Shown piece by piece: positions 29,709 to 49,926 of a DNA stretch of 64,000 bases. The first letter of the stretch is position 1, and every line of letters starts with the position of its first letter. A program made the position numbers and the translations under genes. The notes beneath the pieces were generated by a model that searched no databases, had not been told where the DNA came from, and was given only the letters and a program-made list of their open reading frames with translations. This DNA is from a virus. The stretch covers positions 1 through 64,000 of IMG/VR virus record IMGVR_UViG_3300023179_000072. One strand, given 5' to 3'.

Positions 29709-29786
29709 TAACCCCTTATGGATATTAAACTTACGACAAATTTTACGGGCCCCGGTCGTCACAAGTCCTTTGCTAGCAAGCACTTA
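29709..29786. repeat. Four-palindrome array 1
   Basis: First of 21 copies of a 78-bp array: four 10-bp near-palindromes of the form YAAGNNCTTR spaced 10-5-10-28-10-5-10 around a GC-rich core. Sites here: TAACCCCTTA, ATTAAACTTA, CAAGTCCTTT, CAAGCACTTA. Lies between the DUF932 terminator and the next promoter. Confidence 0.85.
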
Positions 29787-29806
29787 CGCACTTACCCACA
29801 ATCTAC

Positions 29807-29848
29807 AAAAAAAAGGAAGCCGCCCCCCATTTCTGAGGGACGGCCTCC
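29807..29848 (-). terminator. Strong rho-independent terminator
   Basis: Minus strand: GGAGGCCG/CGGCTTCC stem with an inner C/G-rich part, then eight T. 29 bases after the DUF932 stop. Confidence 0.92.
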
Positions 29849-29877
29849 CCGAGCCACGCACCACGAAAGGAGAGCGA

Positions 29878-30825
29878 TTAGATAGCGCTCGCAAACTCGA
29901 CGGCTGTATTTAGAGCCTTGAGATTGTCCACGCCATTCTGGCCGAACCAGAGAGAGTCGAGGCGGTTGCTTACCGTGCGACCCTTAGTGTAGTTCAGGTA
30001 TTCGTTGAAACCGTTGTATGCAGCCCACCACGTTCCGCGAACCCCAACCGCACTCTGCTTCGGTCCTTCGACGAGCGTAAGAATCTCGTCCATGATGTTG
30101 CGAGTACGAGTTTTGATATCCTCGTCCGGGGTCTTATCAATCCCGAGCAGCACCTTGACGTACTTACGAACGTCGTTTTGGTTGAAGTCTTTCGACGCGA
30201 GGAACCGATACTGTTCCGCAGTCGCCTCAAACTGTGCATTGATATTGTCCATGATATCTCGCACATTTTCCAAATTCGTCTTGCTGGAACGGGTATGACG
30301 AATCCTAATAAGTGAACTCTCTTTGCTGCTATGAGCAGCGGCGAGGGTGTTCACACACACAACCCGAATCGGCGTATAGCCGACGCGAATCGACGTTGTG
30401 CCGTCGTGACTGTTAGATAGCAGGATGAACTTGCTCACCTCGTCACCCTTGACAATCTCGCAATTGTCGCGGTTGAGTTGAGCCAGTACCCAAACCTTCT
30501 CGCCTTCACTGAGCGAACCGGCAGTGTGCAGTTGGCACTCGCCAGCATCGAGGAACGGCTGGAACCAGTCGAACGCATCCTGATTTTGCAGGGGCGTATA
30601 ACGGGGGCCAACCACTCCCAGAACACGGTTGTCGGTCTTGCGGAAAGTCGCCTTGGCATTGACCTCCGTACCTTCAGCCGTAAAGAGCGGCTTGGTTCCG
30701 ACCTCCCAATCCAGACCAGCAGCGGTAATCGCCTCGCTGATCGACGGATTCTCATCCAATTGCGTACCCTCACCGTGCCAAGGGGTGGCACCGACGAACA
30801 TCATCTTTTCAACCATAGCGGGCAT
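29878..30825 (-). CDS. DUF932 phage/plasmid protein
   Basis: A 315-aa protein, starting at ATG 30823-30825 with AAGGAG 6 bases upstream (MPAMVEKMMFVG). It is the DUF932 (TIGR03299) family: TPWHGEGTQL near the start, NYTPLQN-like VGPRYTPLQNQDAFDWF, then VWVLAQL, a central LLLSNSHDGTTSIRVG and a helical C-terminus with YNGFNEYLNY and DSLWFG. Length is normal. The family is common in phages and plasmids, and its function is not established. It is much more GC-rich than the genes to its left and marks the start of the right-hand block. Own promoter and terminator. Confidence 0.92.
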   Translation of the reverse strand: MPAMVEKMMFVGATPWHGEGTQLDENPSISEAITAAGLDWEVGTKPLFTAEGTEVNAKATFRKTDNRVLGVVGPRYTPLQNQDAFDWFQPFLDAGECQLHTAGSLSEGEKVWVLAQLNRDNCEIVKGDEVSKFILLSNSHDGTTSIRVGYTPIRVVCVNTLAAAHSSKESSLIRIRHTRSSKTNLENVRDIMDNINAQFEATAEQYRFLASKDFNQNDVRKYVKVLLGIDKTPDEDIKTRTRNIMDEILTLVEGPKQSAVGVRGTWWAAYNGFNEYLNYTKGRTVSNRLDSLWFGQNGVDNLKALNTAVEFASAI

Positions 30826-30868
30826 AACTAACTCCTTCGTGTCTAAGAACTTTTGCTTTGATAGTCTA

Positions 30869-30896
30869 AGTATACTACTATTATCGGCTCTGTCAA
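30869..30896 (-). promoter_or_regulatory. Sigma70-type promoter with CGATAATA spacer
   Basis: TTGACA, 16 bases with GCCGATAATAG, TATACT; drives DUF932; 31 bases from array 2. Confidence 0.8.
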
Positions 30897-30926
30897 GGGG
30901 CAAACTTGCGAAAAAATTTCGTGACG

Positions 30927-31004
30927 CAAGTCGTTGGTATACAAGCACTTACGTCGGGCGGGGCCGCCCCGGTTTGCTCTAAGTCTTTTATGGTGAAGGA
31001 TTTA
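30927..31004. repeat. Four-palindrome array 2
   Basis: Sites CAAGTCGTTG, CAAGCACTTA, TAAGTCTTTT, GAAGGATTTA; spacing exact. Overlaps the last 17 bases of the phosphoribosyltransferase gene. Confidence 0.88.
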
Positions 31005-31485
31005 GGAGAGGCATACCATATTTCTTTTCAAAAAGTTTTGATGTTTCTGAGGTATACGCACACTCTTCTGGAATATAACAATACAATCCAACACATCTGG
31101 CCTTCGGATTATCCTCATGAATTGCTTGCTTAATCCATTTAAGAGTATCGCCAGAACAAATTAGATCATCCACTACAATATAACGAAAAGGAGAAACTCC
31201 CTCGATATGGAAATTACTATATCTTTTTTCATCAGGCTTACGAACAATCACAATGTTCTTATTCAGAATTTCACAAACTTGAGGGGTAACAACTAACCCG
31301 CTTACGCCACAACACGCAATACTATCAAAAGTATTAATTATCTTTCGTAGATTACATACTGCCTTAATGATTATTTTATTTCTATTCTTGTGATTTAGCA
31401 CCTGACAAGTATGAGAGGCTCCTTGGATAATTTGTCCATCTGCTGTGCGACGAACATCTTCAATACTTTGATTCATTATATTCAT
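30988..31485 (-). CDS. Phosphoribosyltransferase-fold protein
   Basis: A 165-aa PRTase-like protein. YIVVDDLICSGDTL (about 105-118) is the PRPP-binding loop with two acidic residues, and CCGVSGLVVTP (about 58-68) the first loop. In other PRTases these bind PRPP during nucleotide salvage. The start is ATG 31483-31485, four bases after the end of the tRNA-like relic, with no clear ribosome site; a second ATG lies 3 codons in. Phage PRTases without a catalytic hood may be regulators or salvage enzymes. Confidence 0.8.
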   Translation of the reverse strand: MNIMNQSIEDVRRTADGQIIQGASHTCQVLNHKNRNKIIIKAVCNLRKIINTFDSIACCGVSGLVVTPQVCEILNKNIVIVRKPDEKRYSNFHIEGVSPFRYIVVDDLICSGDTLKWIKQAIHEDNPKARCVGLYCYIPEECAYTSETSKLFEKKYGMPLLNPSP

Positions 31486-31488
31486 AAA

Positions 31489-31567
31489 AACGGATGGTAC
31501 GATTCGAACGTACTATAAGATAAGAAATAAAGAGAGATAATACTTGTCCCACCAAGTCGCATCCGTT
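31489..31567 (-). pseudogene. tRNA-like relic with no anticodon arm
   Basis: AACGGAT/ATCCGTT acceptor stem, ACTT/AAGT D stem and a perfect T arm (GTACG, TTCGAAT, CGTAC) are intact. But the 28 bases between D and T arms are a pyrimidine-rich run that cannot form a 5-bp anticodon stem in any register. It sits in the leader of the PRTase gene. Confidence 0.6.
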
Positions 31568-31581
31568 AGAGAGAAGATCAA

Positions 31582-31779
31582 TTACTCATCATCTATTTCA
31601 TTAGTTAGATTATGATAGTAATTATCCCAGTTGGTGTTTTCAGAATCCTCATAATCTTCGCTATCTTCTTCATCCATCCATGGCTCATCGTTATTACTAT
31701 CATGATAGTAATTTTCGTCAATATAATCGGATTCTGCGACTAACTTGTGATAATCATATTCATATTCATTCAGATTCAT
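31582..31779 (-). CDS. 65-aa very acidic protein
   Basis: Starts after AAGGAGA (MNLNEYEYDYHKLVAE) and is almost wholly Asp, Glu, Asn and Tyr. Like 45298-45507, 45914-46171 and 46188-46376, which may mimic DNA by charge; this is inference. Confidence 0.72.
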   Translation of the reverse strand: MNLNEYEYDYHKLVAESDYIDENYYHDSNNDEPWMDEEDSEDYEDSENTNWDNYYHNLTNEIDDE

Positions 31780-31798
31780 TTCTTCTCTCCTTAGACCG

Positions 31799-31827
31799 AT
31801 TATACACCAACTTTGCTAACTTGTCAA
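31799..31827 (-). promoter_or_regulatory. Sigma70 promoter
   Basis: TTGACA, 17 bases, TATAAT, right behind the tRNA-Lys 3' end. Confidence 0.82.
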
Positions 31828-31828: not shown

Positions 31829-31901
31829 TGGACCCTCTGGGGCTCGAACCCAGAACCAACGGATTAAAAGTCCGCTGCGCTGCCAATTGCGCCAAAGGTC
31901 C
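31829..31901 (-). tRNA. tRNA-Lys (anticodon TTT)
   Basis: Acceptor GGACCTT/AGGGTCC, anticodon loop CTTTTAA between GCGGA/TCCGT, T arm GTTCGAGCC. No CCA encoded. Confidence 0.95.
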
Positions 31902-31909
31902 GTTTAATT

Positions 31910-31937
31910 AGCATACCACTAAAATTTTTTTTGTCAA
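31910..31937 (-). promoter_or_regulatory. Promoter before tRNA-Lys
   Basis: TTGACA, 16 bases, TATGCT. Confidence 0.65.
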
Positions 31938-31938
31938 G

Positions 31939-32010
31939 CAGCCCTATGGAGGATCGAACTCCAATCTCCGGGATGAAAGCCCGGTATACTAGCCATTATA
32001 CGATAGGGCC
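31939..32010 (-). tRNA. tRNA-Glu (anticodon TTC)
   Basis: Acceptor GGCCCTA/TAGGGCT, anticodon stem CCGGG/CCCGG with loop CTTTCAT, T arm GTTCGATCC. Confidence 0.95.
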
Positions 32011-32039
32011 ACATCGCAACTCAATCGTCAGCCTCCGAA

Positions 32040-32115
32040 TAGGGCGTCAAGGAGTCGAACCTTGCTCATGAACTGCTTATAAGACAGGTGACCACTACCG
32101 GCGGTCGCACGCCCC
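32040..32115 (-). tRNA. tRNA-Ile (anticodon TAT)
   Basis: Acceptor GGGGCGT/ACGCCCT. Loop CTTATAA gives anticodon TAT for the AUA codon, common in the AT-rich genes here. The anticodon stem has one mismatch at its outer pair. Confidence 0.88.
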
Positions 32116-32123
32116 ATACTTCA

Positions 32124-32152
32124 ATCATACAATACTTATCGGCACTTGTCAA
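32124..32152 (-). promoter_or_regulatory. Sigma70-type promoter with CGATAA spacer
   Basis: TTGACA, 17 bases with CCGATAAG, TATGAT; 21 bases from array 3; drives tRNA-Ile and tRNA-Glu. Confidence 0.75.
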
Positions 32153-32172
32153 CCAGATACTTGAAAAAATCC

Positions 32173-32250
32173 TAAGTCGTTACGAGATAAGAACTTACGT
32201 CAAATTCGGCCCGCCACATTTGCTCTAAGTCTTTTATTTCCAACAACTTA
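32173..32250. repeat. Four-palindrome array 3
   Basis: Sites TAAGTCGTTA, TAAGAACTTA, TAAGTCTTTT, CAACAACTTA; exact spacing. Abuts the tRNA-Tyr 3' end. Confidence 0.88.
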
Positions 32251-32251
32251 G

Positions 32252-32331
32252 TGGTTGGTTAGGGACTCGAACCCCCGAAGCCGAAGCACCTGATCTACAG
32301 TCAGGCCCATTTGCCGCTCTGGAAACTCACC
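32252..32331 (-). tRNA. tRNA-Tyr (anticodon GTA), weak acceptor stem
   Basis: Anticodon stem CCTGA/TCAGG with loop CTGTAGA and a class-II variable arm. The 3' side of the acceptor is ACCAACC but the 5' side is GGTGAGT, leaving two mismatched pairs. Confidence 0.8.
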
Positions 32332-32340
32332 TATATATAA

Positions 32341-32427
32341 CAGAGGCCGAGAGAATTGAACTCTCACCGGTTTTATCCGGCCCGCTTTAGCAAAGCGGTG
32401 CAGCAAACCAATATCTGCCTGACCTCT
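32341..32427 (-). tRNA. tRNA-Ser (anticodon GCT)
   Basis: Acceptor AGAGGTC/GGCCTCT, anticodon stem CCGCT/AGCGG, loop TTGCTAA, long variable arm with CCGG/CCGG. Confidence 0.95.
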
Positions 32428-32435
32428 AAATATAA

Positions 32436-32517
32436 CTGCTCGGGCTGGACTTAAACCAGCAAGTCTTTCGACGGTTGATTAACAGTCAACTGCGTTTATC
32501 AATTTCGCCACCGAGCA
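32436..32517 (-). tRNA. tRNA-Asn (anticodon GTT)
   Basis: Acceptor TGCTCGG/CCGAGCA, anticodon stem GTTGA/TCAAC, loop CTGTTAA. The variable region is 13 bases, longer than usual for Asn. Confidence 0.9.
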
Positions 32518-32522
32518 TCAAA

Positions 32523-32594
32523 TTCCGGAGTCTGGGTACGATCCAGAAATAAAAGGGCCAAAACCTTTTGTGATACCAGTTTCACCACTCCGGA
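32523..32594 (-). tRNA. tRNA-Gln (anticodon TTG)
   Basis: Acceptor TCCGGAG/CTCCGGA, anticodon stem AAAGG/CCTTT, loop TTTTGGC. Its 5' end abuts the stop of the HNH gene. Confidence 0.93.
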
Positions 32595-33191: not shown

Positions 33192-33264
33192 AGCCGGTAG
33201 TAGGATTTGCACCCACGACATTCAAATTACAAATTTGACACTCTGCTAACTGAGTTATACCGGC
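33192..33264 (-). tRNA. tRNA-Thr (anticodon TGT)
   Basis: Acceptor GCCGGTA/TACCGGC, anticodon stem TCAAA/TTTGA, loop TTTGTAA. Confidence 0.94.
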
Positions 33265-33930: not shown

Positions 33931-33962
33931 CCAGGAACTTTAGAAGATTTTTGAATTTGCCC

Positions 33963-34040
33963 TAAAGTATTGTGGCTAAAGGACTTACGATGAACCCGGC
34001 CGGCCCCGCTTGCCCTAAGTGCTGTCGCACCAAGGGTTTG
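33963..34040. repeat. Four-palindrome array 4
   Basis: Sites TAAAGTATTG, AAAGGACTTA, TAAGTGCTGT, CAAGGGTTTG; exact spacing; 10 bases after the stop of 34050-34220. Confidence 0.85.
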
Positions 34041-34049
34041 CGGCAAGCC

Positions 34050-34470: not shown

Positions 34471-35175
34471 TCAATGAGCAGGGAATAAAACATTCGCAAG
34501 CCCCCTTACGCAGAGATCGCAAGAGATACTATCCTTCGTGCCCGTGCAAGTAATAACCGAGCGGCCACGACGGATTTCTGGACATACCACAAACTTTGTA
34601 TCATTAAGAACCACCAACTTCGGCAGTGCTTTTCTCCATGCATCTGCCTTTGCTTTGTTCTTCGGTCGCTTGGGTGCAATCTTCATATCGCTATCGCACC
34701 ACGCAAACTTTTTGAAACCCTGTGATAGTGCTTCGCCCATATCATTATCATCATGCACACTAGCGTACACATTCATATACTTTTCCAGGCTCACAAGCCT
34801 AGAATCGTAAATATGAGTGTAAAACCACATATCGGGCAGCGCATCACCATCGGCAAGAATACTCTCACAAGCCCATGTCACGTTGGCAACATAGTCTAGG
34901 TCAAGTTCGCCATTGAGAAACCAATCGCCACGCTCATGCCAACGGATACTCTTCTCACGACGCTTGGCGTCAAGAATCATTGCCCGAATCTTATTCTTCT
35001 CAGTCACAACATTCGCAAAACCAGCCGTGCGGGCATTCTTATATTGATTTTCAGTCGCTTCAGCATAGCAACCATTCCCAAGATAATCGCAGTCAGGAGG
35101 ACAAGTATCCCCAACCGGACGCGAAACCACAATGCAACCCTTACCCAACTTATCATTACCATCAGCGGTTTTCAT
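34471..35175 (-). CDS. GP88-like Cys-motif phage protein
   Basis: A 234-aa protein. The first 45 residues read NDKLGKGCIVVSRPVGDTC then PPDCDYLGNGCYAEA, the Cys pattern (C-x3-C-x6-C) seen in GP88-type phage proteins; ITCTGTKDSISCDLCVRG at the C-terminus gives another Cys group. In between are WHERGDWFLNGELD and TWACESI. The Cys groups may bind metal. It was not identified by search, so the family call is by resemblance. Own promoter with CGATAATC spacer. Confidence 0.7.
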   Translation of the reverse strand: MKTADGNDKLGKGCIVVSRPVGDTCPPDCDYLGNGCYAEATENQYKNARTAGFANVVTEKNKIRAMILDAKRREKSIRWHERGDWFLNGELDLDYVANVTWACESILADGDALPDMWFYTHIYDSRLVSLEKYMNVYASVHDDNDMGEALSQGFKKFAWCDSDMKIAPKRPKNKAKADAWRKALPKLVVLNDTKFVVCPEIRRGRSVITCTGTKDSISCDLCVRGLANVLFPAH

Positions 35176-35199: not shown

Positions 35200-35228
35200 A
35201 TTCTACTCTAGATTATCGGCAACGTCAA
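35200..35228 (-). promoter_or_regulatory. Sigma70-type promoter with CGATAAT spacer
   Basis: TTGACG, 17 bases with GCCGATAATC, TAGAAT; 31 bases from array 5. Confidence 0.75.
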
Positions 35229-35258
35229 GTGAAAAACTTGAAAAAATTATTTTTGATG

Positions 35259-35336
35259 CAAGTCCTTATGGGTAAAGAACTTACGATGAATCCGACCCGC
35301 CCCGTTTATCCTAAGTCTTTACCCTCAAAGAACTTA
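35259..35336. repeat. Four-palindrome array 5
   Basis: Sites CAAGTCCTTA, AAAGAACTTA, TAAGTCTTTA, AAAGAACTTA; exact spacing. The inner arms also pair as GGGTAAAG/CTTTACCC. Confidence 0.88.
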
Positions 35337-35398
35337 GAAGAAGCTCACAAGCTTTTAAGAATTGCTCGGTAGTTTCAGCATCGCTTTTCATAATCTAA

Positions 35399-35471
35399 TA
35401 CTGCCGGAAGGATTTGCACCCTCGTAAATCAACTTAGAAGGTTGATGCCTAATCTACTCGGCCACGGCAGC
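35399..35471 (-). tRNA. tRNA-Arg (anticodon TCT)
   Basis: Acceptor GCTGCCG/CGGCAGT (one G-T pair), anticodon stem ATCAAC/GTTGAT, loop CTTCTAA for AGA codons. Confidence 0.93.
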
Positions 35472-35507: not shown

Positions 35508-35735
35508 GCCCACATGGCGTCCCATGCAGGCTATACGGGTTTGTGGCGTTATCCTTACCACTACATAGTATACTCTAGAGAGGATAACTTCGGAGTTACC
35601 ATCTCCTTATTCGGTTGGTTAGACCTTCTCTAGGTTGCACCATTATTGTCCTGCAACGAGAACTTCATACGCGGGACGAGTCCCGCCGCACTATGCCTAA
35701 ATTCTATTTATACTGGCATAGTCCAGTTTATTGAT
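35508..35735 (-). ncRNA. Candidate structured RNA, unknown class
   Basis: A 228-bp stretch without a gene between 35736-35984 and the tRNA-Arg promoter. On the minus strand: CTATGCC/GGCATAG, GCGGGAC/GTCCCGC, TTGCA/TGCAA, and CTAGAGA/TCTCTAG enclosing GGAG/CTCC, then CATGG/CCATG inside GCC/GGC. Six helices, several perfect, in a non-coding tract. It may be the 3' end of the upstream mRNA or a separate RNA. Class not recognised. Confidence 0.5.
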
Positions 35736-36056: not shown

Positions 36057-36116
36057 GTCTGCCATGAAGGTTTCTGTTGTTGGCATCGTGGCAGCCACTT
36101 GCGTCGTGTTCAATCA

Positions 36117-36144
36117 TTCTACAGTATAGTATCGTCATTGTCAA
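36117..36144 (-). promoter_or_regulatory. Second, tandem promoter with CGATA spacer
   Basis: TTGACA, 16 bases with GACGATAC, TAGAAT; 42 bases from array 6. Confidence 0.7.
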
Positions 36145-36185
36145 GAGCGAACTTGAGTCTCCCTCAAAAATTTTTTCTTTTGTTG

Positions 36186-36263
36186 TAAGTTGTTTGGTGG
36201 TAAGCACTTACGTCAAGGTCGGCCAGCCCCGTTTGCCGTAAGTCTTTACAGCATAGGGGTTTA
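36186..36263. repeat. Four-palindrome array 6
   Basis: Sites TAAGTTGTTT, TAAGCACTTA, TAAGTCTTTA, TAGGGGTTTA; exact spacing; 2 bases after the stop of 36266-36649. Confidence 0.88.
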
Positions 36264-36265
36264 GG

Positions 36266-36649
36266 TTACGAGAGATAACCCTCACAACCCAAACCCACCA
36301 GATCACGCAGCAGTGCCTCTGCCGCTTCGGGCGTTTTCAGAGTAATACTCTGCTTTGCACCGGACTTGGCAGGAACGAACTTGTCGTAATGCCAGCCACC
36401 AACCAGACAATCCGTCCAATCCTTGCTTTCCTTCAATCCCCAACCAGTGTGGAGTCGAATAGCCTTAATGCAAGCGATACGATTATCCAGAGTCATACCA
36501 CCAGTGATGGTTACGGTGCGATTCTGGTTCACGCCCAATTCCATCTCAAAAGCGTTCACAATCTTGTGATACAGTTCGACATCATTATTGTATGCCCAAC
36601 TGGTAGCCAGATTCATAGCCTCACGCACCGTCAGTTCCAACTTAATCAT
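36266..36649 (-). CDS. Protein with ribosomal L7/L12-like C-terminal domain
   Basis: A 127-aa protein. The second half (RIACIKAIRLHTGWGLKESK, then DWTDCLVGG and LKTPEAAEALLRDLVGLGC) follows the L7/L12 C-terminal fold, where the K-I-x-x-I-K-x-x-R-x-x-x-x-x-G-L-K-E-A-K pattern binds translation factors. The N-terminal 60 residues are different (AMNLATSWAYNNDVELYHK). A phage protein using this fold might touch the host ribosome stalk factors or ClpS-like partners; inference only. Confidence 0.7.
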   Translation of the reverse strand: MIKLELTVREAMNLATSWAYNNDVELYHKIVNAFEMELGVNQNRTVTITGGMTLDNRIACIKAIRLHTGWGLKESKDWTDCLVGGWHYDKFVPAKSGAKQSITLKTPEAAEALLRDLVGLGCEGYLS

Positions 36650-37468: not shown

Positions 37469-37497
37469 AGTATACCTCTATTATCGTCATTTGTCAA
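37469..37497 (-). promoter_or_regulatory. Sigma70-type promoter with CGATAATA spacer
   Basis: TTGACA, 17 bases with GACGATAATAG, TATACT; 29 bases from array 7. Confidence 0.8.
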
Positions 37498-37525
37498 GGT
37501 GGAACTTTAAAAAATTTTTGAGACG

Positions 37526-37603
37526 TAAAGTATTGGTAGATAAAGAGTTACGACAAAAGTGGCCCCGCCGCCTTGCTCTAAGTGTTTTAGAGACAAGGAC
37601 TTG
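37526..37603. repeat. Four-palindrome array 7
   Basis: Sites TAAAGTATTG, TAAAGAGTTA, TAAGTGTTTT, CAAGGACTTG; exact spacing; 2 bases after the stop of 37606-37812. Confidence 0.88.
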
Positions 37604-37605
37604 CG

Positions 37606-37812
37606 TCAAACCACCAGATCGGCTGCATTCTTCACAACAGCCTTTTCTCTGGCAGACCCGATATTTTTGATAATGATCTCTTTGGTTCCCTTGAACTCCA
37701 CCGTGCCATTAGAGTGCATCACCAGATAAGCCTCTCTGCCGTTCTTTCCCTTGAAGAAATAGAGAAGTTCACCCTCGTCTTCAAAATCGCTTCGTGTCCA
37801 CTGTCCGCTCAT
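37606..37812 (-). CDS. 68-aa hypothetical protein
   Basis: Begins MSGQWTRSDFEDEGELLY, has a strand pair (YLVMHSNGTVEFKG) and a Val/Ala-rich end. Start overlaps the previous stop (ATGA). Confidence 0.7.
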   Translation of the reverse strand: MSGQWTRSDFEDEGELLYFFKGKNGREAYLVMHSNGTVEFKGTKEIIIKNIGSAREKAVVKNAADLVV

Positions 37813-38558: not shown

Positions 38559-38587
38559 ATTCTACAGTAAATTATCGGCATTGTCAA
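38559..38587 (-). promoter_or_regulatory. Sigma70-type promoter with CGATAAT spacer
   Basis: TTGACA, 17 bases with GCCGATAATT, TAGAAT; 22 bases from array 8. Confidence 0.78.
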
Positions 38588-38608
38588 GTGGGTTTCTTTA
38601 AAAAATCA

Positions 38609-38686
38609 CAAAGTGTTGTGGCTACAGCACTTACGTCGAAGTTGGCCGCCCCGGTTTGCTCTAAGTGCTTTTGTAGCAACTACTTA
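38609..38686. repeat. Four-palindrome array 8
   Basis: Sites CAAAGTGTTG, ACAGCACTTA, TAAGTGCTTT, CAACTACTTA; exact spacing. GCTACA/TGTAGC also pair. Confidence 0.88.
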
Positions 38687-38693
38687 TGTACCA

Positions 38694-40134: not shown

Positions 40135-40163
40135 ATTCTACTATCTATTATCGGCACTGTCAA
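40135..40163 (-). promoter_or_regulatory. Sigma70-type promoter with CGATAATA spacer
   Basis: TTGACA, 17 bases with GCCGATAATAG, TAGAAT; 32 bases from array 9. Confidence 0.8.
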
Positions 40164-40194
40164 GAGGGTTTCTTGAAGAAAAATTCTTGTAGCA

Positions 40195-40272
40195 TAAGTG
40201 TTTGGTAGGTCAGCACTTACATCAAGCCGGGGCCGCCAGCCTCGTCCTAAGTGCTTTAGGAGCAAGGCTTTA
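40195..40272. repeat. Four-palindrome array 9
   Basis: Sites TAAGTGTTTG, TCAGCACTTA, TAAGTGCTTT, CAAGGCTTTA; exact spacing; 3 bases after the stop of 40276-40533. Confidence 0.88.
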
Positions 40273-40275
40273 TAA

Positions 40276-40533
40276 TCACTTCATTAGATAGGTTATTTCT
40301 TGTCCGGAAGATATTTGAGCAGCATACAGCGCTATACGCTTATCCTTTTCTCGCTTCTCAATCTGGTGGTCGGTCTCACCAATCTCTCTAGCATCGCACT
40401 TTCGTTCCAGATCAGCCAGCAAAACGCTATCGGTACGATTGTCCCTGAAATCTTCCGGAAGCCAGTGATTAGGAACCATAATCATGTCCTTAATCAGTTT
40501 CTCAAACTCTGCCATCAGTTCGTAGCCGTTCAT
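40276..40533 (-). CDS. 85-aa hypothetical protein
   Basis: Start ATG 40531-40533 after GAGGAGA (MNGYELMAEFEKLIKD). Charged helices and a final AAQISSGQEITYL. Not recognised. Confidence 0.7.
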   Translation of the reverse strand: MNGYELMAEFEKLIKDMIMVPNHWLPEDFRDNRTDSVLLADLERKCDAREIGETDHQIEKREKDKRIALYAAQISSGQEITYLMK

Positions 40534-40742: not shown

Positions 40743-40771
40743 ATCCTACTATCTATTATCGGTTCTGTCAA
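40743..40771 (-). promoter_or_regulatory. Sigma70-type promoter with CGATAATA spacer
   Basis: TTGACA, 17 bases with ACCGATAATAG, TAGGAT; 32 bases from array 10. Confidence 0.78.
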
Positions 40772-40802
40772 TAGGTTCCCTTGAAGGAAAATTTTTAAGA
40801 CG

Positions 40803-40880
40803 TAAAGTATTGCTCTACAAGTACTTACGTCAAACCGGGGCCGCCAGCCTCGCCCTAAGTACTTTATCTATAAAGAGTTA
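40803..40880. repeat. Four-palindrome array 10
   Basis: Sites TAAAGTATTG, CAAGTACTTA, TAAGTACTTT, TAAAGAGTTA; exact spacing; sites 2 and 3 covary (TA centre in both). Follows the structured RNA. Confidence 0.9.
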
Positions 40881-41577
40881 GGATAAAATCGTGTTGAATC
40901 ACTTCTTTAACGTCGGTTGGCGGGTAGCACACGCAACTCCCTAGCCGAATATTGCCGACAATATGAAAACCAGCGGAATCTTTTACGCCCCGATTCCTAT
41001 AGCCCACACGATTGCCCCTTGTCAGGATCGGATGGAAACCGCCCACGGAAACCTCCCTAGAATCTTTCACACTGCGCCATGCTATATGATTCATCTGGCT
41101 CTTGGTGACGGTTACTGGTTGTATTGTTGCGGTGCCACGGTGGTAATTGCTGTGGCTTTTCTCATTTCAGGCTTGCGATTGCCTTACTACCCCTGCCGAT
41201 TCTTCGCTCCGAATCGGTATAGATGATTACGTTTCATCTACTTCAGCAGGACCGCATTGTATTGGTCGTGGTGAGGATGCCATCCCCCATAGATTGGTAC
41301 TTCTATCCAACGTATAACCCCGTTGGCAACTCCCCCAGTCTTTCAGAGAAAGTTTATCGAAATAGGTTATCCCAATCTAGTCCCGAGCATGGACCCACGA
41401 TAGTTTTTAGGGACGGATGGATTCGTCTTGGGTTGTCAACGGTGTGCTATCACCTAGACTCTCAACTTGACCATCTACTTCACTGCCCGCCTCTTCCCAC
41501 CATAGCAGGCAGTTGGGCTTTGGGGAAGTTGCTCACGCAACCTAGCAGTCCCTGTTTTGTATTGTCAATGATCGCTG
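40881..41577 (-). ncRNA. Candidate large structured RNA (about 700 nt)
   Basis: A unit with its own promoter (41589-41616) and arrays on both sides, but no convincing gene on either strand over 700 bases. The minus strand has many compact hairpins: GTTGC-GTGA-GCAAC with a GNRA loop (41528-41541), ACTGCCTGC/GCGGGCAGT (41482-41513, with a G-T wobble that only pairs on this strand), CCAACG/CGTTGG (41307-41326), TAGATGA/TCATCTA (41220-41240) and CCGATTC/GAATCGG (41196-41217). Base composition is balanced. Size and setting recall GOLLD/ROOL-type ornate phage RNAs, but I cannot match the sequence. A 76-codon frame (40864-41094) is possible. Confidence 0.6.
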
Positions 41578-41588: not shown

Positions 41589-41616
41589 ATTCTACAGTAT
41601 ATTATCGGCTTGTCAA
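41589..41616 (-). promoter_or_regulatory. Sigma70-type promoter with CGATAATA spacer
   Basis: TTGACA, 16 bases with GCCGATAATAT, TAGAAT; 32 bases from array 11; reads into the structured RNA. Confidence 0.8.
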
Positions 41617-41647
41617 GAGGGTTTCTTGAAAAAATATTTTTTTGATG

Positions 41648-41725
41648 CAAGTCGTTGATACATAAAGACTTACGACGAACTGGGCGGCGCAAATTCGCCC
41701 TAAGTCCCCTTAGGCTAAGAACTTA
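41648..41725. repeat. Four-palindrome array 11
   Basis: Sites CAAGTCGTTG, TAAAGACTTA, TAAGTCCCCT, TAAGAACTTA; exact spacing; 13 bases after the stop of 41739-42233. Confidence 0.87.
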
Positions 41726-41738
41726 GAGCGAACCGCGT

Positions 41739-43397: not shown

Positions 43398-43425
43398 ATT
43401 CTATATGATATTATCGGTTTGTCAA
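43398..43425 (-). promoter_or_regulatory. Sigma70-type promoter with CGATAATA spacer
   Basis: TTGACA, 16 bases with ACCGATAATAT, TAGAAT; 29 bases from array 12. Confidence 0.78.
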
Positions 43426-43453
43426 CACAAAAACTGAAAGAAAAAACTTGTTG

Positions 43454-43531
43454 TAAGTCCTTGCATATCAAGCACTTATGTCAAATGCGGCCCCGCGGCC
43501 TTGCCCTAAGTGCTTATGAGTAAACACTTTA
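43454..43531. repeat. Four-palindrome array 12
   Basis: Sites TAAGTCCTTG, CAAGCACTTA, TAAGTGCTTA, AAACACTTTA; exact spacing; sites 2 and 3 covary. Confidence 0.88.
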
Positions 43532-43556
43532 GAGCAAGACTCAGGACTCTTGTAAT

Positions 43557-44334: not shown

Positions 44335-44373
44335 GAGGGAAACTTTAATCTTTCAGTATTGCAAGGATTGTTG

Positions 44374-44452
44374 TAAAGTATTGGTAAATAAAGACTTATG
44401 GCAAAATAGGCCCCGCCCCGTCAGCCCTAAGTGTTTTAACACAAAGGGTTTA
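44374..44452. repeat. Four-palindrome array 13 (29-bp core)
   Basis: Sites TAAAGTATTG, TAAAGACTTA, TAAGTGTTTT, AAAGGGTTTA. The only copy with one extra base in the core (79 bp). Confidence 0.85.
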
Positions 44453-44470
44453 TGACGAGTACAGATTTAT

Positions 44471-45161: not shown

Positions 45162-45189
45162 ACTATACCATATTATCGACAATCGTCAA
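45162..45189 (-). promoter_or_regulatory. Sigma70-type promoter with CGATAATA spacer
   Basis: TTGACG, 16 bases with GTCGATAATAT, TATAGT; 29 bases from array 14. Confidence 0.78.
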
Positions 45190-45217
45190 GCACAATGTTT
45201 AGGAAATCTTTTTGATG

Positions 45218-45295
45218 TAAAGTGTGAGCCCACAAGGACTTGTGTCAAAAACGGCCCGCCCCCCGCGACGTAAGTCTTTACATCACAAGGGTTTA
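45218..45295. repeat. Four-palindrome array 14
   Basis: Sites TAAAGTGTGA, CAAGGACTTG, TAAGTCTTTA, CAAGGGTTTA; exact spacing; 2 bases after the stop of 45298-45507. Confidence 0.86.
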
Positions 45296-45297
45296 TA

Positions 45298-45507
45298 TCA
45301 CCAATCTGATTGGTCAAAGTCCAGATCAGCATCTTCTAGATGCTCGTCTTGCTCATCGTAATAATCGTCATCATCTTCCGTAGAATAGTTATCGGAGTGG
45401 TAATCGTCGTATCGCTCTGCAATCTCATCATACATATGTTCAGTGTCGGCAGTCCAGCCGCCGATGTGCGATTCCATGAACGAGTCGAGGAAAGAATCTT
45501 CAAACAT
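45298..45507 (-). CDS. 69-aa very acidic protein
   Basis: Begins MFEDSFLDSFMESHIGG, then an Asp/Glu/Tyr-rich chain with EDDDDYYDEQDEHLEDADL. One of four acidic proteins in the right-hand block; DNA mimicry is a possibility. Confidence 0.75.
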   Translation of the reverse strand: MFEDSFLDSFMESHIGGWTADTEHMYDEIAERYDDYHSDNYSTEDDDDYYDEQDEHLEDADLDFDQSDW

Positions 45508-45545: not shown

Positions 45546-45574
45546 TAGTCTACATCTATTATCGTCGCTTGTCA
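45546..45574 (-). promoter_or_regulatory. Sigma70-type promoter with CGATAATA spacer
   Basis: TTGACA, 17 bases with GACGATAATAG, TAGACT; 32 bases from array 15. Confidence 0.8.
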
Positions 45575-45605
45575 AGCGCATTCTTGAAAAATTTTTTACT
45601 ATTCG

Positions 45606-45683
45606 TAAACCATTGATATATAAGCACTTACAACTAGCGCGGTCCGGCCCCGTTGCTACAAGTGCTGTAGCAGCAAGGGTTTA
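45606..45683. repeat. Four-palindrome array 15
   Basis: Sites TAAACCATTG, TAAGCACTTA, CAAGTGCTGT, CAAGGGTTTA; exact spacing; 3 bases after the stop of 45687-45914. Confidence 0.87.
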
Positions 45684-45686
45684 CGT

Positions 45687-45914
45687 TTAGTAATCGCCGC
45701 AAGTATCCAAGCGTACAGGCTCGCTTCTAAATGAACATACGTTCAGTCCGCTAGCAGCAGTTACAGCGTCAAGTTGTATGCCTAGAAACTCTTGTCGTTC
45801 CATAGCATTAGTATCATTATGATTTGGCAATTCCAAAACAAACTCATGCCAGAGCGGCATTTCATAGCCGTGTTCATCTTCCACTACAATATCGTAAAAA
45901 CGATAGTTATTCAT
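45687..45914 (-). CDS. 75-aa hypothetical protein
   Basis: Begins MNNYRFYDIVVEDEHGYEM and has RQEFLGIQLDAVTAASG, then RSEPVRLDTCGDY. Mixed alpha/beta, not recognised. Shares a base with the preceding stop. Confidence 0.72.
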   Translation of the reverse strand: MNNYRFYDIVVEDEHGYEMPLWHEFVLELPNHNDTNAMERQEFLGIQLDAVTAASGLNVCSFRSEPVRLDTCGDY

Positions 45915-46431: not shown

Positions 46432-46484
46432 GAGGCAAACTTAGAAAATAATCTTGTGCCAAACAAAAAAAATATTATTTGTTG

Positions 46485-46562
46485 TAAGTTGTTGTAGGAT
46501 AAGCACTTACGCTTAGCGGGGCCTGCCTTACTGATCATAAGTTCTTATGCAGCAAGGGCTTA
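46485..46562. repeat. Four-palindrome array 16
   Basis: Sites TAAGTTGTTG, TAAGCACTTA, TAAGTTCTTA, CAAGGGCTTA; exact spacing; 2 bases after the HU stop. Confidence 0.9.
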
Positions 46563-46564
46563 TG

Positions 46565-46861
46565 TCAACATACACTTTCAGCCTTTACCGACAGTTCCTG
46601 TGCCATAGCCTTACCCATCTTGAACTTGACGGTCTTGCGAGCCTCAATCATAACGGTTTCGCCAGTACGAGGATTACGAGCCTTACGAGCCTTAGATTCA
46701 ACCACGTTGAAAACACCAAAATTACGCAGTTCGATTCGTCCTTCACTGACAAGAGTAGCCATCAGTTCATCCAAAGTGTGCTGGACTATGGCCTTAGCCT
46801 GCAAACCAGTAATGCCACACTTCTCAGCAATCCGTTCGGCCATATCACGCTTAGTATTCAT
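46565..46861 (-). CDS. HU/IHF-family DNA-binding protein
   Basis: A 98-aa HU-like protein. MAERIAEKCGITGLQAKA gives the N-terminal helices, then VSEGRIELRNFGVFNVVE and the arm ARNPRTGETVMIEARKTVKF, with the conserved R-N-P-x-T-G tip that inserts into the DNA minor groove. Start ATG 46859-46861; the frame upstream is non-coding (array). Such proteins bend and compact DNA. A phage copy could organise its own genome or help assemble nucleoprotein complexes at the palindrome arrays (inference). Confidence 0.93.
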   Translation of the reverse strand: MNTKRDMAERIAEKCGITGLQAKAIVQHTLDELMATLVSEGRIELRNFGVFNVVESKARKARNPRTGETVMIEARKTVKFKMGKAMAQELSVKAESVC

Positions 46862-46963: not shown

Positions 46964-46978
46964 GCAAATACCGTGCCA
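46964..46978 (-). promoter_or_regulatory. Sigma54-type -24/-12 box (HU)
   Basis: TGGCAC-GGTAT-TTGC: GG and GC are 10 bases apart as in sigma54 promoters. Follows array 17. Confidence 0.5.
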
Positions 46979-46984
46979 AAGCCG

Positions 46985-47062
46985 TAAGTCGTTAGCCAGC
47001 AAGCACTTGCGGCAAATCTGGCCCGCCGGCCTTGTCCTAAGTGTTTTAGGCTCAAGGCTTTA
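46985..47062. repeat. Four-palindrome array 17
   Basis: Sites TAAGTCGTTA, CAAGCACTTG, TAAGTGTTTT, CAAGGCTTTA; exact spacing; 3 bases after the stop of 47066-47377. Confidence 0.9.
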
Positions 47063-47065
47063 TGT

Positions 47066-47377
47066 TCAAGGACCAATAACCATTCCACTATAGAACGGGA
47101 ACACCTGTTCACCTTTACTCACAAACCACTTAAAGTTTTTCTGAAATACAGTATACGGACTATACTGATTGATTCGATCCTTCGTGGTACTGGTTTGCCA
47201 GCCCCCATTGCTGAGGGTATACGTTCCATCCTCATGGATTCTCACCACGCAAGTACGATGCAGCGTGATGCCCACGCTACCATCACTCAAAATCTCCGCA
47301 TAAGTATTATTACCAACCTTACGACGGTTAGCATTACGCTTACCACGAACCATAGAAACTGCTTGTGAGTGAGTCAT
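47066..47377 (-). CDS. Conserved phage protein (GWQTSTTKDRIN)
   Basis: A 103-aa protein with HRTCVVRIHEDGTYTLSNGG, then GWQTSTTKDRINQYSP and FQKNFKWFVS, a family found in many phages with the strand-G-W-x-T-x-T-T-K-D-R-I-N core. Function unknown. Confidence 0.85.
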   Translation of the reverse strand: MTHSQAVSMVRGKRNANRRKVGNNTYAEILSDGSVGITLHRTCVVRIHEDGTYTLSNGGWQTSTTKDRINQYSPYTVFQKNFKWFVSKGEQVFPFYSGMVIGP

Positions 47378-47681: not shown

Positions 47682-47719
47682 GATAAAACTTTCCTTGCAA
47701 TGCTGTAAGGTTTAGCTCA

Positions 47720-47734
47720 GCAAAAAGCGTGCCA
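47720..47734 (-). promoter_or_regulatory. Sigma54-type -24/-12 box
   Basis: TGGCAC-GCTTT-TTGC between array 18 and the sigma70 promoter. Confidence 0.55.
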
Positions 47735-47749
47735 AAATAGTTGGTGTCA

Positions 47750-47827
47750 TAAGTTGTTGTGTGGCAAGTACTTACGTCAAATCCGGCCCGCCATATTTGC
47801 TGTAAGTGCTTATACAGCAAGGGCTTA
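47750..47827. repeat. Four-palindrome array 18
   Basis: Sites TAAGTTGTTG, CAAGTACTTA, TAAGTGCTTA, CAAGGGCTTA; exact spacing. Confidence 0.92.
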
Positions 47828-47860
47828 TGCATTATGCTGAAACTTTGTTAAGCATGATCA

Positions 47861-48220: not shown

Positions 48221-48248
48221 ATTATAGCAGGATTTTTTTGGATTGCAA
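48221..48248 (-). promoter_or_regulatory. Sigma70 promoter
   Basis: TTGCAA, 16 bases, TATAAT. Confidence 0.8.
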
Positions 48249-48286
48249 GACAAAAGTTTCCTTGCAATGTCGTAAGATTCAGCAGA

Positions 48287-48301
48287 GCAAATGCTGTGCC
48301 A
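48287..48301 (-). promoter_or_regulatory. Sigma54-type -24/-12 box
   Basis: TGGCAC-AGCAT-TTGC between array 19 and the sigma70 promoter. Confidence 0.55.
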
Positions 48302-48326
48302 AATATTGAGCAAATCATGTTGAACA

Positions 48327-48404
48327 TAAAGTGTTGCGGCATAAAGACTTACATCAAATCCGGCCCGCCCGCTTTGCCGCAAGTCTTTTAGCGACAAGGG
48401 GTTA
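48327..48404. repeat. Four-palindrome array 19
   Basis: Sites TAAAGTGTTG, TAAAGACTTA, CAAGTCTTTT, CAAGGGGTTA; exact spacing; sites 2 and 3 covary (GACTT/AAGTC). Confidence 0.92.
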
Positions 48405-48407
48405 CGT

Positions 48408-48674
48408 TCAATCCCCACTCAGGAAGGGGTATCGCTCTTGAAGCACCCTATCCGTCTCATCCCACACAGCGTCCTGCTCGACACGGACGCAGTAGTCGTT
48501 CAGCTTCTGGTAGAACGTAGCCGCATCCCGAAGCAAAACATTTTCGGGAAAATTGTTGATTCGTACGAAAAATCCACCACCCCCCGTTGAGGTGATATCA
48601 AAACGCACGTCATCATGCATCATATCATAGATAGCGTCGATGATTTCCTGAGCCGTAACGATTCGACCAAGCAT
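48408..48674 (-). CDS. 88-aa hypothetical protein
   Basis: Begins MLGRIVTAQEIIDAIYDMM, then FDITSTGGGGFFVRINNFP. Start preceded by a purine-rich leader. Alpha/beta, not recognised. Confidence 0.72.
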   Translation of the reverse strand: MLGRIVTAQEIIDAIYDMMHDDVRFDITSTGGGGFFVRINNFPENVLLRDAATFYQKLNDYCVRVEQDAVWDETDRVLQERYPFLSGD

Positions 48675-48707
48675 TTCTTTTTCCTTTTCTCTCTTTCTCT
48701 TTCCAGA

Positions 48708-48735
48708 ATTGTATGCAATTTTTCCGCCGCGTCAA
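48708..48735 (-). promoter_or_regulatory. Sigma70-type promoter with operator
   Basis: TTGACG, 16 bases with CGGCGGAAAAA, TACAAT. The -35 joins an inverted repeat at 48735-48752. Confidence 0.72.
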
Positions 48736-48752
48736 TCCCTCAAACGAGGGAT
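48735..48752. promoter_or_regulatory. Inverted repeat ATCCCTC-N4-GAGGGAT
   Basis: A perfect 7-bp inverted repeat upstream of the -35, repeated in changed form at 49613-49630. Terminator or operator. Confidence 0.6.
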
Positions 48753-48967
48753 CGGTTTTCGCTAGCGATTTTCGCATAGAGAGAATCGTACACAGTACGA
48801 TGAACACAGTCCAAATCAACACTCTTCAAGGTATAGTAGCCGACAATATTGTCAAAAATATGGTACTTGTCACCTTCCTTGACAATCGTAAAACCCACCC
48901 GATAGGCGTAATAGTTGATCTTTGCACGAATAGTGCTATACTTCGGCATCTTGCGAATCTTTCTCAT
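48740..48967 (-). CDS. 75-aa basic protein
   Basis: Begins MRKIRKMPKYSTIRAKIN, then YRVGFTIVKEGDKYHIFDN, ends in a helix. Its 3' end carries part of the inverted repeat. Not recognised. Confidence 0.72.
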   Translation of the reverse strand: MRKIRKMPKYSTIRAKINYYAYRVGFTIVKEGDKYHIFDNIVGYYTLKSVDLDCVHRTVYDSLYAKIASENRSLV

Positions 48968-49011
48968 GTTCTTCTCTCTCTTTCTCTTTCTTCTCTACTT
49001 CTTATATCGAC

Positions 49012-49040
49012 ATTATACAGGGTCTATCTTGAGTTTTCAA
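49012..49040 (-). promoter_or_regulatory. Sigma70 promoter, CGATATAA after -10
   Basis: TTGAAA, 17 bases, TATAAT then GTCGATATAAG. Confidence 0.72.
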
Positions 49041-49123
49041 GAGAAATCCTGAAATTTTTCTGTCAAGAAATTTTGACAAAACTTTTTGGATTTTTCATAT
49101 GCTTTGGCATACCATATGCTAGA

Positions 49124-49138
49124 GCAAAAAGTGTGCCA
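49124..49138 (-). promoter_or_regulatory. Sigma54-type -24/-12 box
   Basis: TGGCAC-ACTTT-TTGC after array 20. Confidence 0.55.
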
Positions 49139-49154
49139 TACTAGCAATTCGCCC

Positions 49155-49232
49155 TAAGTCTTTACGCTGTAAGTACTTACATCAAATCCGGCCCGCCATA
49201 TTTGCTGTAAGTGCTTATACGACAACGGTTTA
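49155..49232. repeat. Four-palindrome array 20
   Basis: Sites TAAGTCTTTA, TAAGTACTTA, TAAGTGCTTA, CAACGGTTTA; exact spacing. Confidence 0.9.
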
Positions 49233-49263
49233 TGGCTTCACAAAATTTCGTATAAGATTTCTG

Positions 49264-49338
49264 TTAAGCATTGAGCACCTGTACAGTAGTGTATGTTACA
49301 AAAACGCTAAACACTAACAACCCTATAATTTCAGGCAT
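49264..49338 (-). CDS. 24-aa membrane peptide
   Basis: ATG 49336-49338 overlapping the upstream TGA, stop at 49264. MPEIIGLLVFSVFVTY and on, one hydrophobic helix. Confidence 0.5.
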   Translation of the reverse strand: MPEIIGLLVFSVFVTYTTVQVLNA

Positions 49339-49552
49339 TCCTACCTTCTTTCCAACCAGCAAACACCAAAGTAAACTCCTTACCGGGATATTTGGCAGCA
49401 ATATAAGCACGAGCAGTCTCTTCACGATTGTCGGAAGCAGACACACCCTGAACACCAACACCATCAATCATAACATTCCAAATCCTACGCTTAGGAAACT
49501 TCACCCTAGGCAGGCTTCGGATAAACTGATTCACACTAGTAACCTTTTGCAT
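49331..49552 (-). CDS. 73-aa basic protein
   Basis: Start at ATG 49550-49552 (MQKVTSVNQFIRSLP) after a GAGAGAGAG leader. KFPKRRIWNVMIDGVGV, then ARAYIAAKYPGKEFTLVFAG. Small alpha/beta protein, not recognised. Confidence 0.7.
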   Translation of the reverse strand: MQKVTSVNQFIRSLPRVKFPKRRIWNVMIDGVGVQGVSASDNREETARAYIAAKYPGKEFTLVFAGWKEGRNA

Positions 49553-49584
49553 TTTCTCTCTCTCTCTCTCTTTCTCTACAAACC

Positions 49585-49613
49585 AATCTACCAAACTTTT
49601 TCCGCCGCGTCAA
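49585..49613 (-). promoter_or_regulatory. Sigma70-type promoter with operator
   Basis: TTGACG, 17 bases with CGGCGGAAAAA, TAGATT; the inverted repeat ATCCC/GGGAT (49613-49630) adjoins the -35, as at 48708. Confidence 0.7.
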
Positions 49614-49639
49614 TCCCCCTAATGAGGGATAAATTTTCA

Positions 49640-49702
49640 TCACGGCATTGTTACGCCAACAATCAAACCGAAAATAGCCACAACGCAAAAAATGCAAACC
49701 AT
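49640..49702 (-). CDS. 20-aa membrane peptide
   Basis: ATG 49700-49702 with AAAGGG upstream, TGA 49640-49642. MVCIFCVVAIFGLIVGV and on. First gene after the promoter at 49743-49770. Confidence 0.5.
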   Translation of the reverse strand: MVCIFCVVAIFGLIVGVTMP

Positions 49703-49742
49703 AAACGAAACCCTTTCTTTCTTCTCTATCTCTTATATCGAC

Positions 49743-49770
49743 ATTATACCACGGTATTCTTTAGTTGCAA
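49743..49770 (-). promoter_or_regulatory. Sigma70 promoter, CGATATAA after -10
   Basis: TTGCAA, 16 bases, TATAAT then GTCGATATAAGAG. Confidence 0.75.
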
Positions 49771-49808
49771 GAAAAAAATTTCCTTGCAATGCTGTAAGGT
49801 TTAGCTCA

Positions 49809-49823
49809 GCAAATATTGTGCCA
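49809..49823 (-). promoter_or_regulatory. Sigma54-type -24/-12 box
   Basis: TGGCAC-AATAT-TTGC after array 21. Confidence 0.55.
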
Positions 49824-49848
49824 AATATTTAATTCAATAGACTCGCCA

Positions 49849-49926
49849 TAAATCCTTTACCAGATTAGACTTACATCAAATGTGGGCGTCCATATTGATC
49901 ATAAGTCTTTATACCTCAATAACATA
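49849..49926. repeat. Four-palindrome array 21 (last copy)
   Basis: Sites TAAATCCTTT, ATTAGACTTA, TAAGTCTTTA, CAATAACATA; spacing exact but the outer sites are weak. Confidence 0.82.

What the first reader, a model, noticed from the sequence alone, without database searches (positions are those of the whole stretch)
29709..49926. 21 copies of a rigid 78-bp array of four palindromes at transcription-unit boundaries
Between the stop of one gene and the promoter of the next, 21 times in 20 kb, four 10-mers of the form YAAGNNCTTR occur with spacing 10-5-10-28-10-5-10 (one copy has 29). The inner two are the best conserved (ACTTACG and TAAGT) and covary as an inverted pair, e.g. CAAGTACTTA/TAAGTACTTT and TAAAGACTTA/CAAGTCTTTT. 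The 28-bp core is GGCCNGCC-rich. The array usually starts 2-4 bp after a stop codon and lies about 30 bp upstream of a -35 box. None occurs left of 29.7 kb. The spacing is constant while the 5-bp gaps do not covary, which favours protein-bound DNA (four dimers) over an RNA stem. It could be an activator or anti-silencing array, a 3'-end RNA structure, or a packaging/partition-type site. I know of no described phage element with this layout.
Basis: seen in the sequence. Interest (0 to 1): 0.9.

Follow-up and report, generated by a model that had tools for sequence, protein, structure and literature searches.

The report
Phased four-site arrays at phage promoters
Uncultivated large phages carry, upstream of many promoters in one block of small genes, a rigid 90-bp array of four copies of one DNA word that looks like a landing platform for an unidentified protein positioned on a fixed face of the DNA relative to RNA polymerase; neither the array nor its binder was found described.

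Summary
There are 21 arrays, all in one orientation, at 29.7-49.9 kb, and none elsewhere in the 81-kb record. Each is four 16-bp units (YAAGGACTTACGTCAA) arranged as two 37-bp palindromes 53 bp apart.

The same array is widespread in IMG/VR. I found 486 copies in 107 loci, with a rigid unit offset (21 bp in 485/486). In eight related phage records (up to 244 kb), 12-21 copies sit in a single 14-22 kb block rich in sigma70-type promoters. Four unrelated 203-381 kb phages carry exactly one.

In 305 divergent copies there is no base-pair covariation; arms pair slightly less than shuffles, so an RNA hairpin is rejected. Arrays are never inside genes. They sit upstream of gene starts and are almost absent from convergent junctions. 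The distance to the -35 box is helically phased (peaks 20, 30-31, 41-42, 52-53, 64 bp).

Best explanation: a protein-bound upstream activation array contacting RNA polymerase on one DNA face. The binder is unknown. No matching host operator turned up in 368 bacterial genomes, and no obvious shared phage DNA-binding gene. Protein binding and activation are inferred, not shown.

The parts
29703..29792 (+). array 1 (four 16-bp units)
30921..31010 (+). array 2
32167..32256 (+). array 3; its outer unit overlaps the 3' end of the tRNA at 32252-32331
33957..34046 (+). array 4
35253..35342 (+). array 5
36180..36269 (+). array 6
37520..37609 (+). array 7
38603..38692 (+). array 8
40189..40278 (+). array 9
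40797..40886 (+). array 10
41642..41731 (+). array 11
43448..43537 (+). array 12
44368..44458 (+). array 13 (the copy with a 29-bp middle gap)
45212..45301 (+). array 14
45600..45689 (+). array 15
46479..46568 (+). array 16
46979..47068 (+). array 17
47744..47833 (+). array 18
48321..48410 (+). array 19
49149..49238 (+). array 20
49843..49932 (+). array 21
29667..29694 (-). sigma70-type promoter after array 1 (TTTACA-16-TATAAT)
30869..30896 (-). sigma70-type promoter after array 2 (TTGACA-16-TATACT), -35 box 30 bp from the array
32124..32152 (-). sigma70-type promoter after array 3, 20 bp
35200..35228 (-). sigma70-type promoter after array 5, 30 bp
36116..36144 (-). sigma70-type promoter after array 6, 41 bp
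37469..37497 (-). sigma70-type promoter after array 7, 28 bp
38559..38587 (-). sigma70-type promoter after array 8, 21 bp
40135..40163 (-). sigma70-type promoter after array 9, 31 bp
40743..40771 (-). sigma70-type promoter after array 10, 31 bp
41589..41616 (-). sigma70-type promoter after array 11, 31 bp
43398..43425 (-). sigma70-type promoter after array 12, 28 bp
45162..45189 (-). sigma70-type promoter after array 14, 28 bp
45547..45575 (-). sigma70-type promoter after array 15, 30 bp
46964..46978 (-). sigma54-like TGGCAC-N5-TTGC after array 17
47720..47734 (-). sigma54-like element after array 18
48287..48301 (-). sigma54-like element after array 19
49124..49138 (-). sigma54-like element after array 20
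49809..49823 (-). sigma54-like element after array 21

Best explanation
Each array is a double-stranded DNA binding platform for one sequence-specific protein. Four copies of a 16-bp half-site (YAAGGACTTACGTCAA) form two 37-bp palindromes five helical turns apart, so two dimers or tetramers would sit side by side on the same DNA face. The bound complex lies just upstream of a promoter, at whole-turn distances from the -35 box, and raises that promoter's output, by touching RNA polymerase (class I-like) or by keeping host silencing proteins off. The phages use it for a block of small, probably early genes. Shown here: architecture, rigidity, distribution, orientation, promoter association, helical phasing and lack of RNA covariation. 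Inferred: that a protein binds, that it activates, that the genes are early, and who makes the protein.
For: Unit offset 21 bp in 485/486 copies; middle offset 53 in 440/486; no hits on reversed sequences. All strong column couplings are between adjacent or near columns, as for base-step readout of DNA; arms pair less than shuffled arms, 0.643 vs 0.660, sd 0.003, as + strand RNA and 0.629 vs 0.644 as - strand RNA. None of the copies lies inside a gene; 383 of 449 lie between co-directional genes in one orientation, and the 50 reversed ones have weak strand scores. 276/458 copies have a TTGACA/TATAAT promoter (at most 2 mismatches) downstream, against 28 and 11 in the two control readings on the other side. 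Distances to -35 peak at 20, 30-31, 41-42, 52-53, 64; after removal of similar copies R=0.52 at 10.6 bp against a maximum of 0.20 with +-5 bp jitter. An A-tract then T-tract lies just upstream of -35. Sigma70 promoter density in the block is 0.77-1.41/kb against 0.10-0.23/kb outside. Four unrelated phages keep a single array, within a few hundred bp upstream of a gene start.
Against: No binding, expression or footprint data exist. Many of the promoters are near consensus and might not need activation. About half of the strong promoters in the block have no array directly upstream. Minor peaks at 35 and 46 bp are off phase. Homologous loci may share spacing by descent; the <75% identity filter reduces this but does not remove it. 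No binder gene was identified.
Confidence: 0.65

Rival explanations
1. Repressor or looping operator array: the bound protein shuts off or times the early promoters, or serves immunity, by DNA looping or by oligomerising into the promoter, and needs helical phase for that reason.
For: Phasing also fits looping repressors; many dispersed operators for one regulator are known for phage repressors (stoperators). Near-consensus promoters are easier to imagine as repressed than as activated.
Against: Sites lie entirely upstream of -35 and do not overlap the promoter. No repressor or integration gene was found among the annotated core genes, though the survey was partial. Stoperators are single 13-bp asymmetric sites.
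Confidence: 0.13
2. Topological or domain insulator: arrays bind gyrase, a nucleoid protein or a barrier protein at transcription-unit boundaries, like BIME elements, and isolate strongly transcribed units from each other.
For: Arrays occur about once per kb at transcription-unit boundaries in a strongly unidirectional, promoter-rich block.
Against: Only 2 of 16 convergent junctions of at least 110 bp carry an array against 418 of 654 tandem ones; fixed orientation and phasing to -35 are not needed for a barrier; single-copy phages keep just one.
Confidence: 0.11
3. RNA element at 3' ends: terminator, processing signal or protective hairpin.
For: Single copies can be folded as long hairpins, e.g. 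32173 and 47750 on the + strand with z below -3, and some gene stops lie a few bp upstream.
Against: No covariation in 305 divergent copies and pairing below shuffles on both strands; no Rfam match; nearly absent at convergent junctions.
Confidence: 0.03
4. Partition, packaging, replication-initiation or recombination site that happens to sit in intergenic gaps.
For: Single copy per genome in four unrelated phages is typical of ori, par or pac sites; homology blocks between related phages end at arrays in 22 of 84 cases, more than the roughly 10% of sequence they cover.
Against: 12-21 copies, all promoter-proximal with helical phasing; no ParB N-terminal domain in the records of the array-rich clade searched; homology-block ends at gene boundaries are expected anyway and no control was run.
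Confidence: 0.06

Closest known systems
Fis-type upstream activating sequences of E. coli rRNA promoters (from general knowledge)
   Same: several protein sites upstream of -35, helically phased to a sigma70 promoter with an A/T-rich element between; strong expression
   Different: Fis sites are degenerate 15-bp sites with an A/T-rich centre and variable spacing; here four copies of a 16-bp unit in a rigid 90-bp dyad, with a G/C core in the main clade, repeated at many promoters of one phage
Upstream activator sites of sigma54 enhancer-binding proteins (from general knowledge)
   Same: paired palindromes upstream; five window arrays are followed by exact sigma54-like elements
   Different: most arrays serve sigma70-type promoters; no Sigma54_activat domain in 13 related records
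Mycobacteriophage stoperators (PMC9283540)
   Same: many dispersed copies of one phage operator in intergenic places
   Different: single asymmetric 13-bp sites that stop elongation; no four-unit array, no promoter phasing
BIME/REP elements of enterobacteria (from general knowledge)
   Same: intergenic palindromic repeats at transcription-unit boundaries
   Different: BIMEs sit at 3' ends and form RNA stems; arrays avoid convergent ends and show no pairing signal

Membership tests
Helically phased upstream activator array (class of mechanism) | sites upstream of and not overlapping -35 | tested here: met
Helically phased upstream activator array (class of mechanism) | whole-turn spacing to the promoter | tested here: met
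   peaks 20, 30-31, 41-42, 52-53, 64; R 0.52 vs jitter maximum 0.20; minor off-phase peaks at 35 and 46
Helically phased upstream activator array (class of mechanism) | a bound protein raises transcription | not testable with these tools
   needs binding and reporter assays
Fis UAS | Fis-type degenerate 15-bp sites with A/T-rich centre | tested here: not met
   unit consensus YAAGGACTTACGTCAA, rigid spacing
sigma54 enhancer-binding protein UAS | downstream sigma54 promoter | tested here: not met
   sigma54-like element in only 17 of 468 copies; 5 of 21 in the window
sigma54 enhancer-binding protein UAS | AAA+ activator present | tested here: inconclusive
   absent from 13 phage records; the host could supply it
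Intrinsic terminator or RNA 3'-end element | base-paired stem kept by compensatory changes | tested here: not met
Intrinsic terminator or RNA 3'-end element | present at convergent gene ends | tested here: not met
   2 of 16
ParB-parS partition site | partition gene in the genome | tested here: not met
   no ParB_N match in the searched records of the array-rich clade; matches in a few single-copy phages
Transposable or recently spread repeat | copies within a genome more alike than between genomes | tested here: not met
   0.652 within vs 0.656 between

The most novel reading that the evidence does not exclude
A previously undescribed regulatory system shared by unrelated large phages: a highly conserved but unidentified protein recognises a four-unit 90-bp platform and, in one clade, has been recruited to 12-21 promoters so that a whole host-takeover region answers to one phage-specific nucleoprotein switch.
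Probability: 0.4. Interest if true: 0.88.

Novelty: new variant of a known kind. Interest (0 to 1): 0.78.

Why it matters
It gives a specific, testable handle on how large uncultivated phages drive their takeover genes. The site is long and information-rich, occurs in hundreds of copies, keeps one specificity across genomes whose proteins differ by 30-50% and across phages of 34-56% G+C, and is phased to RNA polymerase. One pull-down with array DNA could reveal the binder.

Tried and rejected
- RNA structure: rejected by covariation and pairing tests.
- Mis-spaced patterns: one search was one base off and is superseded; one search was also one base off and found nothing, so it is not evidence.
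- One search gave an unexplained undercount of viral copies and is superseded; its result for bacterial contigs agrees.
- Crude longest-ORF gene calls were misleading because of antisense ORFs and were replaced by a codon-usage caller.
- ParB as the binder, suggested by one locus (L318) with a 37-bp palindrome upstream of a ParB-like gene: rejected for the main clade.
- Binder by gene content: families found in all four single-copy phages and in the main clade were a trypsin-like protease, a clamp-loader neighbour of unknown function, a protein without Pfam match above cut-off and a secreted 113-aa protein; none looks DNA-binding.
- Host operator: one 37-bp palindrome in 369 genomes of one class, in a phage-like contig binned with a MAG.
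- Genome-contig scan: 119 stretches, only two with real arrays, both short multi-array contigs that look like phage in MAG bins.
- Concerted evolution or recent spread: rejected.
- Literature: no paper found.
Full report
CHECK OF THE OBSERVATION. The 21 arrays are in the window at the stated starts, all in one orientation. A strict pattern of the four boxes gives 5 matches within 3 mismatches against none in 100 shuffles. A model of four units at fixed offsets finds 21 arrays in the 81,337-bp record, all between 29.7 and 49.9 kb, and none on the reversed sequence. Genes in this part run on the minus strand.

ANATOMY. From 403 copies and the unit profile, each box is part of a 16-bp unit YAAGGACTTACGTCAA. 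Units A, B, C, D are oriented <- -> <- ->. A and B form a 37-bp palindrome around a 5-bp gap, and so do C and D; the two centres are 53 bp apart, five turns of B-DNA. In 486 IMG/VR copies the A-B and C-D offsets are 21 bp in 485, and the A-C offset is 53 in 440, 52 in 25, 51 in 10, 50 in 9 and 54 in 2; reversed sequences give none. The middle 10-11 bp are almost purely G/C in the main clade, whose genomes have 34-36% G+C, but not in the single-copy phages, so the G/C core is a clade feature.

DISTRIBUTION. In whole records the arrays sit in one block: 12-21 copies within 14-22 kb in each of eight related records. Four other large phages (203-381 kb; two at 55-56% G+C, two at 35-37%) carry exactly one array each, with A-C offsets of 51-52 and scores within the clade's range. 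No DNA match to the whole element was found in 50,697 phage records. In bacterial genome contigs only two short multi-array contigs showed arrays, and they look like phage in MAG bins. The 37-bp palindrome was absent from 368 other genomes of the class of one of those MAGs.

THE PHAGES. The window record shares its terminase (68-79% among clade members) and head protein (82-88%) with contigs of up to 244 kb. They encode UvsX, DNA polymerase, DnaB-like helicase, rIIA/rIIB and a volactin, and a weakly matched sigma-70 region-2 protein. The head protein's only match in the phage collection is Bacillus phage G at 20% identity. The group is therefore uncultivated as far as these collections show.

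RNA OR DNA. In 305 copies less than 85% alike, the strong couplings between columns are between neighbours one to three apart; the few long-range ones involve columns 58, 60, 61, 81 and 82 and do not follow base pairing (shuffle maximum 0.061). Along the hairpin axis, arms pair in 0.643 of cells against 0.660 (sd 0.003) when right arms are dealt out among copies as + strand RNA, and 0.629 against 0.644 as - strand RNA. Real copies thus pair slightly less than random combinations. Together with no Rfam match, this rejects a conserved RNA stem, although single copies can be folded into one because the boxes are palindromic.

PLACE AND ORIENTATION. With a codon-usage gene caller, none of the classified copies lies inside a gene. 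383 lie between co-directional genes in one orientation, 50 in the other (median strand-score difference 3.6 bits against 13.4, so many of these may be misassigned), 13 between divergent and 3 between convergent genes. Of gaps of at least 110 bp, arrays occupy 418/654 tandem, 13/39 divergent and 2/16 convergent ones. They therefore follow promoters rather than gene ends.

PROMOTERS AND PHASING. 276 of 458 copies have a TTGACA/TATAAT promoter with at most two mismatches within about 100 bp downstream, against 28 and 11 in the control readings on the other side. The distance from the array to -35 has peaks at 20, 30-31, 41-42, 52-53 and 64 bp, with smaller ones at 35 and 46. After removing copies with 75% or more identity over array and promoter, R at 10.6 bp is 0.52, against a mean of 0.07 and maximum of 0.20 when positions are jittered by +-5 bp. 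An A-rich then T-rich stretch lies just upstream of -35. Promoters of this strength are about 5-14 times denser in the block than outside; with small genes and interspersed tRNAs this suggests an early region, which is an inference. Seventeen of 468 copies have a sigma54-like element downstream, and in the window record the five exact ones are all next to arrays.

EVOLUTION. Copies within a genome are no more alike (0.652) than copies in different genomes (0.656), so they are neither recent duplicates nor homogenised, and one specificity is shared by genomes whose proteins differ by 30-50%. The binder must change slowly. Shared gene content did not reveal it: families present in the clade and in all four single-copy phages are not recognisably DNA-binding. 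A host protein, a very short or divergent phage protein, or a virion protein all remain possible.

MECHANISM. The best-supported reading is a nucleoprotein platform upstream of promoters, acting on RNA polymerase in helical register, most likely as an activator. Rigid dyads, neighbour coupling, orientation, exclusion from genes and phasing are shown. Binding, activation, timing and the binder are inferred. Rivals are a looping repressor array, a topological insulator, and a partition or recombination site; their weights are given in the fields.

COMPARISON. It works like phased upstream activating sequences such as Fis sites at rRNA promoters (comparison from general knowledge), but it fails the sequence and spacing features of Fis sites, lacks the general sigma54 link of enhancer-binding-protein sites, and differs from stoperators (PMC9283540) in architecture and place. 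I therefore file it as a new variant of a known kind, with a substantial chance that the system behind it is new.

LIMITS. Gene calls are home-made, promoter calls are consensus matches, contigs may be incomplete, and the loci were drawn with a pattern that favours the main clade.

Noticed in passing
window 35665-35727 (-): Pistol self-cleaving ribozyme inside the array block (Rfam RF02679, 53.9 bits, above its gathering score).
   Followed up: no
window 46964-46978, 47720-47734, 48287-48301, 49124-49138, 49809-49823 (-): Five exact sigma54-like elements TGGCAC-N5-TTGC, the only ones in the 81-kb record, each just downstream of an array and mostly followed by a sigma70-type promoter; no sigma54 activator domain in 13 related phage records.
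   Followed up: partly
window 47685-47736 and related copies; L114, L074, L076, L127, L099: A second inverted repeat CCTTAC-N6-GYAAGG between array and -35 in a subset of copies (family D10; examples).
   Followed up: no
window promoters, e.g. 37469-37497, 45547-45575 (-): The promoter spacer carries a conserved CGATAATA in many array-linked promoters, between -35 and -10.
   Followed up: no
window 31829-32594, 33192-33264, 35399-35471 (-): Seven tRNA genes within the array block; one ends inside the outer unit of array 3.
   Followed up: no
array blocks of G000, G017, G021, G027 and others: Homology blocks between related phages end in arrays in 22 of 84 cases, and single genes between arrays differ strongly in divergence (e.g. 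window 34471-35175 is 96% identical to G017), suggesting cassette-like exchange.
   Followed up: partly
L015, L055, L100, L315: In a group of G+C-rich phages the single array lies upstream of a tiny very acidic ORF of 26-38 residues.
   Followed up: no
L318 1866-1902 and 2151-3023: A lone 37-bp palindrome of the same type lies upstream of a ParB-like gene.
   Followed up: partly
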